From: Metaphire vulgaris
Taxonomy: Eukaryota > Annelida > Clitellata > Crassiclitellata > Megascolecidae
Reading direction: 5' to 3'
DNA length: 64,000 bases
Assembly (NCBI GenBank): GCA_018105865.1
Contig: CM030865.1
Span: forward strand, 3,010,216 to 3,074,215
Positions 16,765-55,057 of this stretch are shown one piece after another (position 1 is the stretch's first letter; each line of letters begins with the position of its first letter). The translations under genes and the position numbers were made by a program. The notes beneath the pieces are model-generated. The model was not told where the DNA came from. It did no database searches and worked only from the letters and a program-made list of their open reading frames with translations.

Positions 16765-23011
<6,247 letters not shown>

Positions 23012-24712: not shown

Positions 24713-25024
24713 GAAAAGTCTTGACAAGCAAAGGAACGTCGTCAAGTAAAATTCCAGTGTGCTTACAATTTGTTTCTATCGAACCTACCCATACTTGACC
24801 TTTCATCTGGATGCCCCTCCCCTCTTCACGCTACTGCAACTACTCCACTGCTACTTTTATACTCCAGCTAAAATATCCCTAAAGAGAAGAGCATCTCAAA
24901 CACATGCTTAGTCACAGAATTTAACTGGGCTACACTGTTATAATTGCACATGCACACACACACATACACAAACACATGTATGTATGTATGTATGTATTGG
25001 TATAAGAACTATTAAGTATAAGAT

Positions 25025-26355: not shown

Positions 26356-27192
26356 GCCTAGGGCATCAACCAATGGTGCACAAAATCCAATCCAAATTAG
26401 AGACAGGTCAAGCCGGAAAGGTTAGTCAGATGGGGGAAGGGGGTAGAAATCCAAGGGGATAGGCCAAGCCATGGCCAAACAGGTATGTCCTAAGACCAGA
26501 TCTAAAAGCTGACAATGTGCTGTGCTGTACTCAAATTTCAAAATGATGTGCACATCAGTTAACTGTCACAACTAAAGCTGGTGAAGGCTTTGGAACATTT
26601 TTCATGTTCCCATGCCTGTGACTTTCAGCTGAAATTAACTAGAATTTAGGCAAAAATACTCAAAATCATAGTTGGCTAAATTATAAAACTCATATAGAAA
26701 AAGTGACAACAGTTCCCAATAGATCCTGTGAGAATAAAAGAAAACCAGAATGTTCATGAGGTGAAAACATTTACCAGTACATTAAGAAATAACAATTATA
26801 GATATCCTGCAATTATGTGCATAGGCGCAGACATTCTAAAATGAGAAACGTTTAAATTAATATTTACTAGCACATTCTGCTCATTTTTAGCATCATACAA
26901 GCTGTTATCACAGCTATGTGATTTACATATTACATTCAATACCTGTAATCGCCAACTAAGACCACACAATCTGAACATTTCAATAAATACTACAATAGCT
27001 GGGTTTAACAGTACAGATTATACTATACAAAAATATAAATTTAAATAAGTAAATCAAATCTAAATTCAATTTTCAGTTTGCTAAAACCTTTGCAGGATGT
27101 TGCAATCATGGAATAAACTAGCAAGTGCACACGATCATTATAAACACATCTTAAACTGGGTAAAATTTATATAGCGCTGCTTAAACTTGGCG
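26356..27192. other. Unannotated stretch
   Basis: AT-rich, no gene seen. At 27160-27192 it contains the inverted end of a GCGCTATATAAATTT-type SINE, the target of the large foldback element. Confidence 0.4.
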
Positions 27193-27340
27193 CAGTGCGC
27201 CACGTCTATAAAGCTAGCAGCGGATTCGATATTCAGATATTCACACATTCGATCCATAGATATGACCAATAGCCTAAATATAACTCCGTCATACAATTAA
27301 ATATTTCTAATATATTTTAATATCTGCCTATATCTACATC

Positions 27341-28690
27341 GAGTGCTAGCCCTCTGGGGTGTACCCCTCCAATTTTGTGTCTATATCTCTTCCAGGTCAA
27401 AAGTGCTAGGCCATTTAGACATTCGCCAATGCTATTTAATAGCCTAAAAATTCATGTCTTGTAAAATTATTTTGTACGCAACTTTTTAAATTTCTGCCTA
27501 TACCTACACCGAGTGCTAGCCCTCTGGGCTCTACCCCTCCAATATTGAGTCAATATCTCTTGTACATCAAAAGTGCTGGGTCATTTAGACATTCACCAAT
27601 GCTATTTAATAGCCTAAAATATTCGTACAGGGTAAATTAATTTTTATGCAACTTTTTAAAATTCGGCCTATACCTACACCGAGTGCTAGCCCTCTGGGCT
27701 CTACCCCTTCAATATTGAGTCAATATCTCTTGTACATCAAAAGTGCTGGGTCATTTAGACATTCACCAATGCTAATTAATAGCCTAAAAATTCATACTTG
27801 GTAAATTAGTTTTTATGCAACTTTTTAAAATTCTGCCTACATCTACACCGAGTGCTAGCCCTCTGGGCTCTACCCCTCCAATATTGTGTCTATATCACTT
27901 GCAGGTCGAAAGTGCTAGGCCATTTAGACATTCGCCAATGCTATTTAATAGCCTAAAATTTCATATTTGGTAAATTAATTTTTTATGCAACTTTTTATAA
28001 TTCTGCCTATACCTACACCGAGTGCTAGCCCTCTGGGCTCTACCCCTGAAATATTGTGTCAATATGTCTTGCAGGTCGAAAGTGCTAGGCCATTTAGACA
28101 TTCACCAATGCTATTTAATAGCCTAAAATATTCATACAGGGTAAATTAATTTTTATGCAACTTTTTAAAATTCTGCCTACATCTACACCGAGTGCTAGCC
28201 CTCTGGGCTCTACCCCTCCAATATTGTGTCTATATCACTTGCAGGTCAAAAGTGCTAGGCCATTTAGACATTCGCCAATGCTATTTAATAGCCTAAAAAT
28301 TCATACTTGGTAAATTAGTTGTTTATGCAACTTTTTAAAATTCTGCCTCTACCTACACCGAGTGCTAGCCCTCTGGGCTCTACCCCTCCAATATTGAGTC
28401 AATATCTCTTGTACATCAAAAGTGCTGGGTCATTTAGACATTCACCAATGCTATTTAATAGCCTAAAATATTCGTACAGGGTAAATTAATTTTTATGCAA
28501 CTTTTTAAAATTCTGTCTATATCTACATCGAGTGCTAGCCCTCTAGGCTCTACCCCTCCAATATTGAGTCAATATCTCTTGCAGGTCAAAAGTGTTTGGT
28601 CATTTAGACCTTCACCAATGCTATTTAATAGCCTAAGAAATTCATGCCTTGCAAAATAATTTTTTATGTAATTTTTTAAATTTCTAGGTA
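27341..28690. repeat. 170-bp tandem array, 8 copies (left arm)
   Basis: GAGTGCTAGCCCTCTGGGCT recurs at 27341, 27511, 27681, 27850, 28020, 28190, 28360 and 28530, spaced 169-170 bases. Each unit also has CCAATGCTATTTAATAGCCT and TTATGCAACTTTTTA. Units differ by a few percent. A decayed ninth unit ends near 28720. Confidence 0.93.
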
Positions 28691-28984
28691 TTTCTACTGC
28701 TAGTGTTAGCCCACTGCCAAACTAACCCACTCTCCTGAGTCTCCTCCCACTGAAGTGGCTATTGACATACCCACCATTGAATTCAGTCTTCCCCCCTCTG
28801 TGACAGGAATGTTGCATTCACTGGCAGCTGAGGGAGAAAAGCAAAAAATGAAACTTTGTGTTTTGGTGGTAAATGGGGATAGGGTAATGTTAACATTTGA
28901 AACAATTTATCAGCGTTGCTTATTAGACCAGTTATATATCATCATGACCAGGCAATAAAATTGACAAATCATTACTTAGAGATA

Positions 28985-29145
28985 GAGCAATAGCTCATAT
29001 TTGACATGCATATGGCTTTTCTCCAAAATGATTTCTTTCATGGCTTAAACACTGAATGTTTTTCATCAATTTTACAAACATATGGTTTTTCCCCCACAAT
29101 GAATTTTCTCATGGCATTCAAGAATAGAGGATGTGTTTGTATCCA
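28985..29145 (-). pseudogene. Degenerate C2H2 zinc-finger fragment
   Basis: The - strand reads GEKPYVCKIDEKHSVF with a second degraded linker near 29010. The GEKPYVC linker is diagnostic of C2H2 arrays. Stops and lost histidines show decay. It lies inside the foldback element. Confidence 0.6.
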
Positions 29146-29429
29146 ATTTATAAATCTGCAATATCTTCAATTTCTTGCTGTTTCCTCGAACCACTATATA
29201 TTATGTAGTTCCTTTATTTTCTTAAGTCAAACTATCCTATAAAGTAAAGTGATAGCATATTGCAAATTTTAGCATTAACTTGAAGTGCCCAAATTTCTCT
29301 TTCTCTATCACACAAATTGGGGACTGCCAGAATATTTTAAGAATACCGGTAAGCTATTGCATGTGTCCAGGTTAGAGCTGCAGCAATTCATTGATTTGAA
29401 TCAATATATATATATATATATATTATATT

Positions 29430-29720
29430 AGTTTACATGTTTATTCCTTCGATTCATTGATATTCAGATATTCACACATTCGCTCCATAGAGATGCCAAT
29501 GTGTAATTGGTGTAATTGTGGTGAGGACATCTCATAGCGCGAAATTTTAGGCCGACGGCCTAACAGTCACCCCTGAATGCACATGCCAGTGAGAATGTCA
29601 AATTTAGAAAACCATCTCGTTGACTTTGTGTGCTTTTGGGATTTTACAAATGACGAAAGATTAAATCTGCAGGAAAAGTTCTATGCCATTTCGACTTTTT
29701 GCCAATGCTATTTAATAGCC

Positions 29721-29755
<35 letters not shown>

Positions 29756-30110
29756 TAATAATAATAACAATAATTATGCACTACTATAGCACCATTTCAA
29801 ACACCCAAGGGTATCAATCGATGGTACTTCAAATACATCCGCAGAAGACCAGGTCATTCCAGAGATCAGTCAGAGTGAAAAATGAGCCTAAAATAGACAT
29901 CATTGTTAAATTAGTTTGTTATATCACTTATAAAATATTTGGCTATTTACAGACCATGAGTTAGCCCTCTGGACTATACAACTCCAATATTATGTCAAAA
30001 TATCTCGTAAATAAAAAGTGTTGGCCCGCCTAGAATTTGGCCAATGCTATTTAATAGCCTAAAAATTAATACTCGTAAATTATTTTCTTATGCAACATTT
30101 TTCATCCCCG
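29430..30110. repeat. Internal, older copies of the foldback arm repeat
   Basis: 29450-29500 repeats the arm's ATTCAGATATTCACACATTC, and 29690-29725 and 29960-30105 carry GCCAATGCTATTTAATAGCC with GTTAGCCCTCTGGAC. A CTATAGCACCATTTC SINE with AAT tail (29722-29880) is inserted between them. Confidence 0.7.
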
Positions 30111-30199
30111 CCAACTTCATATGAATTCATTTAAGCCCAAACCTGAAATCCTCGAACCGCCATTGCCCGTCAGGGTCGCGACCCGACGGGCAATCACAG

Positions 30200-30430
30200 G
30201 TTAACTCTTAACCAGTGAGTCTTGAGAGCTTTCAAGAATTAAGAGGAGAGAAACCGTATTTGAGCACAGTATGTGACAAATTATGTAGTCATTAAACCAG
30301 TCATGAATGCCAAGAAAGAGTTCATACAGACAACAAGCGGGATGTTGGTGAAATGAGTGATAAACCATTCAGTATTTTTCCACTCTTGGATGCCTTTGGA
30401 GAAATCTATTTTACTCCAAAGTGTAGCTCT
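30200..30430 (+). pseudogene. Degenerate C2H2 zinc-finger fragment
   Basis: The + strand reads RGEKPYLSTVCDKLCSH followed by a stop, then DKPFSIFPLLDAFG. Zinc-finger linker spacing is kept, but cysteine and histidine positions are damaged. Confidence 0.55.
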
Positions 30431-31481
30431 TGAATCATTTTAAAAATTTAGATGTTGGACTGGGAATGCTTTTAAAGAACATTCTTATGCAGTTTTTTGG
30501 CGATGACATATTTGTACAATATAACAAGTTTATTAGTTTACGTACTCTTCACTGTGCTTATTGTGCTTCATGTAAATATGTTACCCATCATTATTATAGT
30601 CACATAAATGTTTTAAAAACATTACAAGGATTTGCCATCTGAGAACGAGACAATAAGCTTTGAGTACAATAGAGTGTAATGCATATGAATTAAGAGAAAC
30701 CATTACTGTATGGTTTGCAAATATGGATGTAATTAATTTTGGTGGTTTTTTGGTATTGGTTATATAAGATTGTATGTGAGAGAAAGTTACTGAAATATAT
30801 TTTTCATTAACATTTCAAGTAGAGTAATTGTAAGTTGTACCATACAATTTATAGTTCTTATTCTATGTAAAAGTTATATTGTTTTTACACTTCTGTGCAG
30901 ATTGTTATTTAGAATAGTTAGCTTATTAGATTCAAAGGAGACCTACGATTTTGTGAAACTTTTTTCTGTCACCGGAATATATGTATACCTAGTCATATAT
31001 GTATATATTGGAACACCTTAACAATTTTAATTGACTTATGTGTATCAATCATTTTGCAGGTTGCAGTTCCTTTACGTAAAAAGTTTCTGCCCATTCAGTG
31101 TTTATACAAATTTATTTCATAGCCTAAATTCAACCTCGTCCTTATGTTAACTATTAAAATATGTTGCTATTTCCTTCCTTTCTATAGATCATGCAGAATA
31201 CTACACCTCCCCTTATCGTATATATTAACAATGCTAACGCATATAGTAAACGTTTGATATAATAAAGTATTATTTTAATTTCAATCAATTGAAGTCATTT
31301 AATTGTCAATTATTTTAATGAAATTAATGTGAAATTCAATTAAGCTTATTTCTCCGGCATGAATTATATAATGGCATTCAAGAGTGATTACATGACTTAA
31401 TAATGATTGCCTAAAATACCTAAAACATTCGGTTTTTCTCGGTATTAGTTCTTTCAGGGCGTTGAAGGCTGATAAATGTCT

Positions 31482-31667
31482 TCATGGTTTATCACATATT
31501 TTACAAGCAGACGGCTTTACTCCTGTAAGAATTGCTTCATGTTGTTTAAGGTGACTTAATTGAATTATTTTGTATTGCTTGTATAGAGAATACGGTTTCT
31601 CGCCTTTTTTAAAAAAGGTATTTTCATGAATGTTCAATCTACTAATGGTGAGCAAATGCTTTGCCAC
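31482..31667 (-). pseudogene. Degenerate C2H2 zinc-finger fragment, 61 codons open
   Basis: Reads GEKPYSLYKQYKIIQLSHLK, then QHEAILTGVKPSACKICDKP. The finger order (linker, first Cys pair lost, LxxHxxxH partly kept, linker, CKIC) is clear. Opposite in orientation to the fragment at 30200. Confidence 0.65.
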
Positions 31668-31879
31668 ATATTATATGTGGCAATCCCAGAAATTATTGGT
31701 GGGGAGGATGGATAAAAGTTTATAGTAAGTTGCATGGTGGTGGGGTGGAATGTGAAGAAAAAAAGAAAGGAAAAAAGGTCAATGTTGGTGCTTTGCCCAC
31801 TAAATGTTAATAAGCCTTGCCAAAAGGCCGACAAGCAAAAAAAGATCATTAACAGTATTTTTCACTATATTTTTAAACA

Positions 31880-31975
31880 CTCACCAGAAAATAGGTTGAC
31901 AGGCTAAAATGGTCATCCGAGTCCTGGTGGGTGAAGGCATCCCCATCATCACCATAGTGGAAGCGCCACTGCACA
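31880..31975. mobile_element. MITE fragment with shared internal motif
   Basis: Contains AATAGGTTGACAGGCTAAAA, then GGTCATCC, and ends TGGAAGCGCCACTGC, the right end of the GGAACCGCCACTG hAT family. Truncated inside the foldback element. Confidence 0.5.
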
Positions 31976-32609
31976 TGTTTATATAACAGTATTCCTATCT
32001 TCCCATGCTTTGCATGTGCAATGTTGCTTTGGCTGACTGTCTGTAGTTGAAAACTTTAAGCTAAACAAAGTGTTCATTAAAAAGGCATCCTTATGAAAAT
32101 TGTTGGCTTTAAAAATATATATGCCGGTATGTTGTTCAGTGAATACTTCCTTCAAATGCAAATACTAAAGAAATATCTGGTAGGCATGTATGCCTTAGGA
32201 GAAAAATTTTGCAATAAAATAAATGATATAAAATCAATGTCATTGTACCCAATGTACCGGTAATATACATTCAAATTGCATAGGCCTACACTCTTCTGTA
32301 CATAAAAATAAGCTGATTATAATTATGCCTTAAAACAATTAAAATTTCAAAAGTCTAATTTGCCTACTGATTAATATCAGAGACATGCCTAAACTAAAGG
32401 CATTTTGCTATACAACCTATCACTTACGGTTTTGCACCGTTAAATTCATAACCGCCATTTATCTGTTAAAACAGTTAAGCAAGATCATCAAATTCTCTCA
32501 ATTCAGAATAGACAATATCTGCAATTTCTTCCAATCATTAGACCAACACTATCACTGTAAAATTATTTTAAAATATCAAAAGTTGCATAAAGAATTAATG
32601 TACGGAGTA

Positions 32610-33070
32610 TGAATTTTTACGCTATTAAATAGCATTGGTGAATGTCTGAATGACCCAGCACTTTTGATGTACAAGAGATATTGACTCAGTATTGGAGGGT
32701 AGTGCCCAGAGGGCTAGCACTCAGTGTAGGTATAGGCAGAATTTTAAAAAGTTGCATAAAAAACTAATTTACCAAGTATGAATTTTTAGGCTATTAAATA
32801 GCATTGGTGAATGTCTAAATGACCCAGCACTTTTGATGTACAAGAGATATTGACTCAATATTGAAGGGGTAGAGCCCAGAGGGCTAGCACTCGGTGTAGG
32901 TATAGGTAGAATTATAAAAAGTTGCATAAAAAACCAATTTACCAAGTATGAATTTTTAGGCTATTAAATAGCATTGGTGAATGTCTAAATGGCCCAGCAC
33001 TTTTGACCTGCAAGACATATTGACACAATATTTCAGGGGTAGAGCCCAGAGGGCTAGCACTCGGTGTAGA
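32610..33070. repeat. 170-bp tandem array, 3 inverted copies (right arm)
   Basis: The inverse of the left-arm unit: GAGGGCTAGCACTCAGTGTA and variants near 32709, 32879 and 33049, spaced 170 bases, followed by the unique inverted end. Confidence 0.9.
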
Positions 33071-33210
33071 TATAGGCAGATATTAAAATATATTAGAAAT
33101 ATTTAATTGTATGACGGAGTTATATTTAGGCTATTGGTCATATCTATGGATCGAATGTGTGAATATCTGAATATCGAATCCGCTGCTAGCTTTATAGACG
33201 TCAGTGCGCC

Positions 33211-33635
33211 AGCTTATTCACAAGCGCTCAACGATTTTACTTACTTAGAGCACATCTATGAGACTTTGACCCAGGTAAAGGTAAAGGTTCGCCCATACTC
33301 GAGTTGTGAATGCATTCTGGACGTTTTGATGGATTTCATAGCCAACTAATTTTACTCACCTTTTAAAAGTAAACACTGGAAACAAATGGAGACAAAATCC
33401 ACATTTATTCGCCTATTTTTCGCATCTCGTTCAGTACTCGAAAATATTTTTTAACAAATCAAGATAGAAGCCTATGTAGGCGTTGCTTAAGCGTAACCCA
33501 CCCGCCCACAACAATCCTCTAACCAATCACTGATTGTCTGCGCATGTGATTTGATTGACGTCCAGACCATGATGCATTGCGTGACACTTTAAACTATTAG
33601 CTGATTGGAGTGGCTGATACACCAGAATGCATTGT
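33211..33635. other. Continuation of the foldback target, nothing further seen
   Basis: Starts with the SINE half cut by the foldback element (AGCTTATTCACAAGCGCTC) and continues as unique-looking sequence without a supported gene. Confidence 0.4.
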
Positions 33636-33837: not shown

Positions 33838-34515
33838 CAGTGGAGGTTCCAGGATTTGGCAAGTGCGGGGGCGTTGGGGTGGCAACTTCTAATCATAGGG
33901 GCCTACCGCTTGTTGTTAGGTATGTAGTATTAAGTATAGGGTCCCAACAGGGAGGCCACTGGGGCCAGACACCCAATAGGGGCACTGACCCACCCTGGGC
34001 CCAGTGGCGGCTCCAGGATTTGGCAAGTGGTGGGGGTGTTGGGGGTGGCGACTTCTAATCAGGGGGTCCTACCGCTTGTTGTTAGGTATGTAGTATTAAG
34101 TATAGGGTTCCAACCGGGTGGCCAATGGGGGCCAGGCACTCAATAGGGGGCACGGACCCACCCTGGGCCCAGTGGCGGCTCCAGGATTTGGCAAGTGGGG
34201 GCAGTTGGGGTGGCAACTTCTAACCATGGGGCCTACCGTTTGTTGTCAGGTATGTAGTATTAAGTATAGGGTTCCAACAGGGTGGCCACTGGGGGCCAGG
34301 CACTCAATAGGAGGCACGGACCCACCCTGGGCCCAGTGGCGGCTCCAGGATTTGGCAAGTGGGGGGCCGTTGGGGTGGCAACTTCTAACCATGGGGGCCT
34401 ACCGTTTGGTGTCAGGTATGTAGTATTAGGTATAGGGTCCCAACAGGGGGCCACTGGGAGGCCAGGCACTCAATAGGGGCACGCCCCCCGGGGCCCCCCT
34501 GTGGAGCCGCCACTG
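33838..34515. repeat. Tandem array of a MITE-derived unit, 4 copies of 158-174 bp
   Basis: CAGTGGCGGCTCCAGGATTT starts at 33838 (variant), 34012, 34170 and 34334. Each unit continues with TGGCAAGTG, GGGGTGGCAACTTCTAA, AGGTATGTAGTATTA and CACCCTGGGCC. The array ends with an inverted GGAGCCGCCACTG terminus, so a hAT-type element has been amplified in tandem between its ends. Confidence 0.85.
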
Positions 34516-34662
34516 AGCCGCCACTGATTAAGATGCTATTGTTCGAAATTTGTGTCTGAAAAATAGCAAGTGGACAGCCTATTGGATGATATTAATCGTG
34601 TTTTCAATAAGGCATGGGGCTGTCCATTAATTATGTCAACAATTTTTGGGCAATTTTCGACC

Positions 34663-35329: not shown

Positions 35330-35640
35330 ATAAATAAATTCGTCTTGTCTTTTTTGCTTGTCTGAATTTTTTTGCTTGTCAGTGATTTTGGAGAGGAAAA
35401 AATACAATTATGACCTATTTTTGGCTTGTCAGGGTTTTTCGAGAGGAAACAATGCAAGGATGACCTTTTTGTTTGTCAAGAGTTTTCGAAACACGAAAAT
35501 GGAGTTGGCCCACTGTGACGTCATATTTTAGAGGGGTCCGACGTTTTGTGACGTCACGCTATGGAAGGGTGAAGGGGGATAAAAAGTGCCTTAAATCGAA
35601 TGAGACGTAATTTATGGACGATCCCTATTGAATAGAGGGT
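35330..35640. mobile_element. Right part of a GTCCATAAATTACGTCA element
   Basis: Repeated TTTTTTGCTTGTC motifs, then GACGTCACGC and the end AGACGTAATTTATGGACGAT. The left terminus is missing. Confidence 0.6.
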
Positions 35641-36030: not shown

Positions 36031-36446
36031 GGGGCCGTCCATAAATTACGTCACGCGGTTATGGGGGGGGGAGAGTTCCGGCCATTTGTGACGAGGTGTG
36101 ACGAAGGGGGGGGGGTTCCGTATATATGTGACGTCACGCAGAAAAAATTTAGGCCATGACCTTTGACCGTTTTTGCGTGTCTGACCTTTTTTGGCTTGTC
36201 AGGGATTTTGTAGAGGAAAAAATACAACAATTATGACCTATTTTTGCTTGTCAGGGTTTTTCGAGAGGAAAAAATACAAGGATGGTCTTTTTTGCTTGTC
36301 AAGGGTTTTCGGAAGACGAAAATGGGTGGGGGGTGTCGGCCCGTTGTGGCGTCATATTTTAGGGGGTCCAACGTTTTGTGACGTCGCGTTTCGTAGAGGG
36401 GTCAAAAAAGTGCCAAATTCGCGTGACGTAATTTATGGACGACCCC
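36031..36446. mobile_element. Intact inverted-repeat element, GGGGCCGTCCATAAATTACG ends
   Basis: GGGGCCGTCCATAAATTACG at the left and GTAATTTATGGACGACCCC at the right, 416 bp. The body has three copies of a TTTTTGCTTGTCAGGG motif. No coding capacity. Related ends at 12500, 34616, 35640 and 62551. Superfamily not assigned. Confidence 0.78.

Positions 36447-38144: not shown

Positions 38145-46031
<7,887 letters not shown>

Positions 46032-48493: not shown

Positions 48494-55057
<6,564 letters not shown>

What the first reader, a model, noticed from the sequence alone, without database searches (positions are those of the whole stretch)
27202..33201. Foldback-type 6,000-bp transposon with satellite-like arms and a perfect 9-bp target duplication
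Seen: matching inverted ends of about 135 bases, then 170-bp direct repeats (8 left, 3 right, in opposite orientation), CAGTGCGCC on both sides, and a SINE that becomes continuous when the element is removed. Known: Foldback elements have tandem-repeat inverted ends and 9-bp duplications; Mutator-like elements also duplicate about 9 bp. Near-identical ends imply a recent event. The 170-bp unit is close to nucleosome repeat length, so such an element could seed satellite DNA.
Basis: partly seen in the sequence, partly recalled or inferred. Interest (0 to 1): 0.88.

Follow-up and report, generated by a model that had tools for sequence, protein, structure and literature searches.

The report
Satellite-armed foldback transposon family, probably Rehavkus
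This is a real jumping gene whose two inverted arms are built from short arrays of a 170-base repeat; it belongs to a family with dozens of copies in this animal's genome, and one large copy carries what looks like the enzyme that moves them.

Summary
27202-33201 is an inserted element: outer ends identical over 137 nt, 170-nt arrays (8 left, 3 right, inverted), a perfect 9-bp duplication, and a dispersed repeat that is continuous across the empty site. The own genome shows a family. The outer 20 nt match 80 times at <=2 mismatches (reversed control 3); 56 of the 80 form 28 copies read at both ends. Of these, 20 have an exact 9-bp duplication, one 10 bp, seven are imperfect. Arms hold 2.8 to at least 30 units. 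One 26.3-kb copy with the same outer ends and an exact 9-bp duplication carries an uninterrupted 1378-aa ORF with a C-terminal PHD finger and DDE-like and Ulp1-like residues. This fits Rehavkus, a Mutator-related group; Tribolium Rehavkus-1_TC is already reported with 164-bp satellite arrays in its inverted termini. So: probable new Rehavkus family, known architecture. New here: two fixed end types (A/B in 19 copies). Only the window copy is A/A: 137 nt of A on a B-like arm, read as terminal conversion. Near-identical ends therefore do not date the insertion. No free satellite array was seen in a capped search.

The parts
27193..27201 (+). left copy of the 9-bp target-site duplication CAGTGCGCC
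27202..27338 (+). left terminal domain, A-type end; its inner part resembles a diverged half repeat unit (local score 70 against a maximum of 55 in 500 simple shuffles)
27340..28685 (+). left array, 8 units of 170 nt
28686..32577 (.). non-coding middle domain; no stop-to-stop ORF of 90 aa or more; 98.3% identical to the middle of copy C16, to which eight further copies are 95.1-98.6% identical (C11a only in part, C19 lacks it, C8a has it rearranged)
29001..29045 (-). weak C2H2 zinc-finger remnant (Pfam zf-H2C2_2 E=2.4e-4, below the curated cut-off); a second match at 31488-31553 (-) has E=0.18 and is not significant
29459..29500 (+). old internal copy of a piece of the terminal domain (93%)
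29668..30101 (+). old diverged repeat units (about 71-87%), split by an insert at 29721-29880 that has relatives at 25002, 25433 and 39396-39545
30270..31055 (+). three stretches 74-80% identical to non-coding DNA beside the candidate transposase ORF of copy C27a (C27:376528-377727): trace of descent from a larger element
32578..33063 (-). right array, 3 units of 170 nt; the outermost unit is B-like
33065..33201 (-). right terminal domain, A-type over 137 nt on a B-like arm: inferred conversion tract; the next base (33064) has the B state
33202..33210 (+). right copy of the 9-bp target-site duplication
27163..27201 (+). left part of the dispersed repeat that was the target; it continues at 33211-33231

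Best explanation
27202-33201 is a non-autonomous cut-and-paste DNA transposon of a Rehavkus-like (Mutator-related) family with foldback arms. Shown: exact termini, a 9-bp duplication at insertion, dispersed copies with the same ends, variable arrays, and one large copy with the same outer ends and an uninterrupted candidate transposase gene. Inferred: a DDE transposase of that kind binds the terminal domain, and perhaps the repeat units as secondary sites, pairs an A end with a B end, excises the element and inserts it with a 9-bp staggered cut. Inferred: unequal exchange changes the number of 170-nt units. Inferred: the copy in the window had its B terminus overwritten by an A terminus, most simply by non-crossover conversion between its own inverted arms or from a sister copy; the intact target duplication argues against a crossover with another locus after insertion.
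For: Ends, duplication, empty site. 80 matches of the outer 20 nt against 3 in the control; exact 9 bp in 20 of 28 copies, 10 bp in 1. C27a, C27:370722-397007: same outer ends, exact TCCTCTGGT duplication, 31 unit matches in the part of its right arm that was read, uninterrupted 1378-aa ORF. ORF: PHD at 1312-1347 (Pfam E 0.006; PDB PHD chains down to E 3.2e-5); a homologue P0001 (E 4e-118, 37% identity) conserves D467, D541, CAAH 588-591, E785, and H1186, D1205, Q1242, C1249; a repeat of 47 aa near 889-1077. Two other transposase remnants lie on the inner side of family or related ends: C10 at 1.9 kb, C22 at 23.6 kb; a rough chance estimate (22 loci, 80 ends) is 0.007 and 0.06. The window middle shares sequence with DNA beside the ORF. 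Literature: Rehavkus = 9-bp TSD, long TIR, PHD finger, minisatellite (PMC6446971, passages); Rehavkus-1_TC carries a 164-bp satellite in its inverted termini (PMC10218199, passages).
Against: No named Rehavkus transposase could be compared with the ORF. Pfam finds no transposase domain in it or in P0001, the PHD hits are below Pfam's cut-off, and the DDE and Ulp1 labels rest on conserved residues and recalled motifs. The model of P0001 failed (pLDDT 34.5). The right end of C27a matches the family only over about its first 70 nt. The other ends of the C10 and C22 elements were not found. Of seven unpaired two-mismatch end matches that I read, four (C2:14087584, C13:8650076, C17:10533330, C28:5994118) do not continue as this family beyond about 20-35 nt, so 80 overstates the number of ends. 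The first unit of the window's right arm is not close to any B arm read (best 91.2%). No binding or activity is shown.
Confidence: 0.78

Rival explanations
1. A canonical Mutator-like element (Phantom, Foldback-NOF or Tetris type), moved by a PF10551 MULE transposase of the host genome; the ORF in C27a is a passenger.
For: 9-bp duplication, long repeat-bearing TIRs; 105 PF10551 matches listed in the genome; Tetris and Tm1 are assigned to Mutator (passages).
Against: Of the 105 listed matches (150 of 153 candidates scored) 44 lie on contigs that bear copies; none lies inside, or within 5 kb of, any of the 28 copies. One, C22:8287254, lies 1.8 kb outside an unpaired family end. Remnants of the C27a protein lie on the inner side of two further ends.
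Confidence: 0.13
2. A P-superfamily element like Galileo (foldback-like arms, THAP-domain transposase).
For: Copy C8a holds a THAP-like exon (Pfam E 0.018, below cut-off). P-type matches lie just outside two copies (1.8 and 3.5 kb from C39, 4.1 kb from C54). Galileo has tandem repeats in long TIRs that hold THAP sites (abstract).
Against: The duplication is 9 bp, whereas Galileo copies have 7 bp (passages). None of the 139 listed PF21787 matches (63 on copy-bearing contigs) lies inside the 28 copies. C8a is old and holds other foreign-looking ORFs.
Confidence: 0.04
3. The identical ends of the window copy are ancestral (a young A/A master element), not a conversion product.
For: Its A terminus is identical over the terminal domain to the A ends of C39 and C8d. 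The first unit of its right arm is not a typical B first unit (best match 91.2%).
Against: The base after the tract has the B state, and the first unit is nearer to B arms (mean 89.7%) than to A arms (85.5%), while the terminal domain is nearer to A (98.2% against 92.2%) (11 other copies); 19 copies are A/B.
Confidence: 0.1
4. Not a transposon: a local inverted duplication of satellite DNA.
For: Arms are satellite-like.
Against: Target duplication, continuous empty site, and dispersed copies with duplications directly outside the same ends.
Confidence: 0.01

Closest known systems
Rehavkus-1_TC of Tribolium castaneum with satellite TCsat23 (PMC10218199, passages read; the Repbase entry itself not seen)
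   Same: 9.5-kb DNA transposon whose inverted termini hold short tandem arrays of a 164-bp unit, mostly five and eight monomers
   Different: Different unit and host genome; here arrays reach at least 30 units in one arm, and two end types, terminal conversion and an intact candidate partner are described
Rehavkus group in general (PMC6446971, passages)
   Same: 9-bp TSD, TIR 26-400 bp, one ORF with PHD finger, minisatellite
   Different: Reported there only from Arthropoda and Annelida, while the host phylum is not identified here; an Ulp1-like region is not mentioned in the passages read
Tetris of Drosophila virilis (PMC4079207, passages)
   Same: Foldback with flanking domain, about 220-bp tandem repeats in the TIRs, 8-10 bp TSD, non-coding middle, repeat related to the flanking domain
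   Different: No autonomous partner known; repeats also form longer satellite arrays outside complete copies, not seen here
Tm1 of Meloidogyne (PMC3169594, passages)
   Same: Foldback-like composite TIRs, mostly 9-bp TSD, coding and non-coding forms
   Different: About 14-bp repeat units; Phantom-like transposase
Galileo of Drosophila (PMC3688188 abstract; PMC3573991 passages)
   Same: Long TIRs with tandem repeats; binding sites for the THAP domain were found in the repeats
   Different: P superfamily, 7-bp TSD

Membership tests
Rehavkus | 9-bp target-site duplication | tested here: met
   20 of 28 copies exact 9 bp, 1 exact 10 bp, 7 imperfect
Rehavkus | long terminal inverted repeats | tested here: met
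   137-nt terminal domain plus inverted arrays
Rehavkus | single transposase ORF with PHD finger | tested here: met
   1378-aa ORF in C27a with C-terminal PHD: below Pfam's cut-off (E 0.006), E down to 3.2e-5 against PDB PHD chains; that the ORF is a transposase is inferred
Rehavkus | minisatellite in the C-terminal part / before the 3' TIR | tested here: met
   47-aa coding repeat near residues 889-1077 and arrays next to both ends
Rehavkus | catalytic domain homologous to reference Rehavkus DDE | not testable with these tools
   no reference Rehavkus protein held; conserved D, D, CxxH, E with P0001 only
Mutator-like (PF10551 MULE) | PF10551 domain in the element | tested here: not met
   no hit in the ORF; none of 105 listed genome matches inside the 28 copies
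Foldback (structural class) | inverted arms made of tandem repeats, variable in number | tested here: met
   2.8 to 27.7 units per arm in 13 copies; 31 unit matches in the part read of one arm of C27a
P superfamily (Galileo-like) | P-type transposase and 7-8 bp TSD | tested here: not met
   9-bp TSD; none of 139 listed PF21787 matches inside the 28 copies
Satellite-seeding element (Tetris-like) | unit also forms arrays outside the element | tested here: inconclusive

The most novel reading that the evidence does not exclude
The nucleosome-length repeat arms (164 bp in beetle Rehavkus, 170 bp here) and the fixed A/B polarity of the ends are functional parts of Rehavkus transposition: the arms act as a phased platform for transposase, perhaps through its PHD finger reading nucleosomes, and an A end must synapse with a B end, so that terminal conversion to A/A, as in the window copy, inactivates the element.
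Probability: 0.13. Interest if true: 0.82.

Novelty: new member of a known kind. Interest (0 to 1): 0.52.

Why it matters
Rehavkus is one of the less described DNA transposon groups ('very few' elements identified, PMC6446971, passage). This family gives an intact candidate transposase together with 28 mapped copies, so it can show how satellite-like arrays grow and shrink inside a moving element. It also shows how inverted arms keep two distinct termini, and how a copy can lose that polarity by terminal conversion. It warns that identity of terminal inverted repeats should not be used as an insertion clock.

Tried and rejected
Searches that found nothing: end pattern in GTDB contigs and unit pattern in IMG/VR (prokaryotic and viral collections, so expected); P450 exon against 5.8 billion proteins; Rfam on the window; NCBIfam on the ORF. 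Structure of P0001: pLDDT 34.5, not used. Host phylum: the COX1 search gave only one short match on a large contig; two haemocyanin searches did not complete. The lead that C1:21343269 begins an autonomous MULE was set aside: a matching inverted end lies 1.7 kb further on, before the MULE at 21353333; its flanks agree in 6 of 9 bases only. MULE and P-type transposases and the THAP exon of C8a were considered as the mover and set aside (rivals). Zinc-finger remnants in the middle are weak and were not pursued.

Rows set aside: of the 80 matches, 56 form the 28 copies read at both ends and 24 are left over. Of these 24, four (two on C8, C20, C36) were read at one end and continue as the family over 138 nt; seven were read, of which three (C1, C10, C22) continue as the family or a relative and four do not; 13 were not read. 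So 20 of 28 refers only to copies with both ends read. In one search, 8 of 28 copies have older end types that do not fit the A/B scheme, though their own two ends also differ. C8a was left out of the arm comparison, which used the window copy and 11 others. One search scored 40 of 156 candidates, 34 of 104, 40 of 157.
Full report
OBSERVATION. The element at 27202-33201 is real and its borders are exact. The outer ends are identical for 137 nt in inverted orientation, the next base differs, and in the next 170 ungapped positions 22 differ. The inverted arms extend 418 nt at 94%. Eight units of 170 nt lie in the left arm and three in the right; the 11 units have a mean pairwise identity of 87.9%, range 75.4-97.6. 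CAGTGCGCC flanks both ends; among 57,800 tested position pairs 6,000 apart, only this pair and its one-base shift match over nine bases. Removing the element and one duplication gives a sequence that matches a dispersed repeat at 45155-45216 across the join, 54 of 62 columns.

ANATOMY. The inner part of the terminal domain resembles a half unit: its local alignment to the unit scores 70 against a maximum of 55 in 500 simple shuffles. The middle has no stop-to-stop ORF of 90 aa or more. It holds an old terminal piece (29459-29500, 93%) and old units (29668-30101) split by an insert with relatives elsewhere in the window, and one weak C2H2 remnant. Best matches between units of the two arms are often out of register (R2 with L3, 97.6%; 127 nt covering the first part of R1 with L4/L5 at 98%), as expected if array parts are exchanged.

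FAMILY. The window lies in a 728-Mb genome of 246 contigs. The outer 20 nt occur 80 times with up to two mismatches, against 3 for the reversed pattern. 56 of these 80 form 28 copies that I read at both ends: the window copy, 12, 15. Exact 9-bp duplications: 20 of 28. One (C39) has 10 bp. C31 has 8 of 9; C40, C41 and C54 are near matches with one or two inserted or lost bases; C8a has 6 of 9; C19 and C30b have 5 bp. Position counts over the 20 exact 9-mers show no strong consensus. Of the 24 matches left over, four read at one end continue as the family; of seven others read, three continue as the family or a relative and four do not; 13 were not read. Lengths of the 28 are 1.9-26.3 kb. In the 13 copies read whole, arms have 2.8-27.7 units; 31 unit matches lie in the part of the right arm of C27a that was read.

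TWO END TYPES. Six diagnostic columns defined on ten copies separate an A end from a B end. Of the 17 remaining copies other than the window's, nine (C9, C11b, C13, C17, C19, C21, C37, C54, C162) also have one A and one B end (C37's B end with 5 of 6 states), so 19 copies are A/B; the other eight have older types. The window copy alone is A/A. In all 27 other copies the two ends differ at 8-47 positions; in the window copy at none. The right arm of the window copy changes type at the inner border of the terminal domain: base 138 has the B state, and the first unit is closer to B arms (mean 89.7%, best 91.2) than to A arms (mean 85.5%, best 86.9), while its terminal 137 nt are closer to A (98.2 against 92.2%) (window copy against 11 others). 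Against this, that first unit is not close to any one B arm, whereas the left arm's first unit is 97.7% to A arms on average; array change in the right arm may account for it. I infer terminal conversion. The intact duplication argues against a crossover with another locus after insertion.

AUTONOMOUS CANDIDATE. Copy C27a (C27:370722-397007) has the same outer ends (its right end only over about 70 nt), the duplication TCCTCTGGT, arrays of the same unit and an uninterrupted 1378-aa ORF on the minus strand at C27:378698-382831. Pfam finds only a sub-threshold PHD finger; PDB PHD domains match at E down to 3.2e-5. One homologue, P0001 (880 aa), matches residues 200-870 at E 4e-118, and the pair conserves D467, D541, C588/H591, E785, then H1186, D1205, Q1242, C1249, then the PHD cysteines. 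I read these as a DDE core, an Ulp1-like protease region and a PHD finger; the first two labels are from recalled motifs. The ORF holds a 47-aa tandem repeat. Other matches in the genome (34 of 104 candidates scored) are broken (C4, C22, C28; main pieces 69-92%, one C4 piece 40%), short (C3:22234272, C10, C32; 61-67%) or more distant (mostly 33-54%, for example C3:17434525, C6, C20, C33). Remnants lie on the inner side of a related end on C10 (1.9 kb) and of an end on C22 (23.6 kb); a rough chance estimate at those distances is 0.007 and 0.06. Three stretches of the window's middle within 30270-31055 are 74-80% identical to non-coding DNA beside the ORF in C27a, which supports descent of the small copies from a larger one.

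OTHER MOVERS TESTED. PF10551 (105 listed matches): none inside or within 5 kb of the 28 copies. PF21787 (139 listed): none inside; three within 5 kb outside (two beside C39, one beside C54). THAP (150 scored of 451 candidates): a sub-threshold THAP-like exon is in C8a.

WHAT IT IS. Rehavkus is described as Mutator-related with 9-bp TSD, TIR of 26-400 bp, one ORF with a PHD finger and a minisatellite, known from Arthropoda and Annelida (PMC6446971, passages). [quoted passage not shown] The match in architecture is close, so I file this as a probable new Rehavkus family, not as a new kind. A full-text search for 'Rehavkus' returned 8 papers; I read passages in four of them. Those passages do not mention two fixed end types, terminal conversion, or an Ulp1-like region; the Repbase entries were not available.

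HOW IT WORKS. Shown: dispersal with 9-bp duplications, shared ends, variable arrays, a candidate gene in a copy with the same outer ends. Inferred: trans-mobilisation by that transposase, the arrays as secondary binding sites (as found for Galileo, PMC3688188, abstract), array change by unequal exchange, terminal conversion in the window copy.

LIMITS. Counts from genome searches are lower bounds. Only 28 copies were read at both ends. No activity is shown. Confidence in the best explanation was lowered slightly (0.80 to 0.78) on re-checking, because four of the seven unpaired end matches read do not continue and P-type matches lie near two copies.

Noticed in passing
window 33838-34526: A second repeat-bearing element 0.6 kb to the right: CAGTGGCGGCTCC-like ends, about four 166-nt tandem units each beginning with that end sequence, and flanks ATTCAGAT / ATTAAGAT (6 of 8), so perhaps a hAT-like element of another superfamily; its end word (16 nt, up to 2 mismatches) recurs at 19778, 43230, 53490, 57414, 57679 and 59492.
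   Followed up: partly
window 38145-44848: Cytochrome P450 exons (PF00067 at 38.1 and 44.4 kb above cut-off, 42.1 kb below it) with long trinucleotide repeats between them.
   Followed up: no
window 48831-49498: 83-nt tandem repeats, 8.3 copies, next to a CAGGGGCGTAGCCAGG-like sequence.
   Followed up: no
window 35367-35470 and 36182-36311: Two short tandem arrays of nearly the same 50-52-nt unit in the same orientation, about 0.7 kb between them.
   Followed up: no
L013/L014 (C8:4308484-4320786): Old 12.3-kb copy whose middle is broken and inverted; it holds a THAP-like exon and a piggyBac-like ORF (Pfam E about 0.02 each, below cut-off) and an ORF that by eye resembles a reverse transcriptase.
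   Followed up: partly
L079/L086 (C1:21343269-21344959): Related shorter element, about 1.7 kb, with ends ACCTCCATAAAGCTAGCAGC; flanks agree in 6 of 9 bases.
   Followed up: partly
G000 C33:12102516, C3:17433790, C6:8795041: Other long reading frames 38-44% identical to the candidate transposase, apparently further Rehavkus-like families in the same genome; their ends were not read.
   Followed up: no
L009/L010, L011/L012, L018: Copies C30a, C26 and C11a share an ORF, by eye reverse-transcriptase-like, at the inner border of the B array, so they probably descend from one copy that had received that insert.
   Followed up: no
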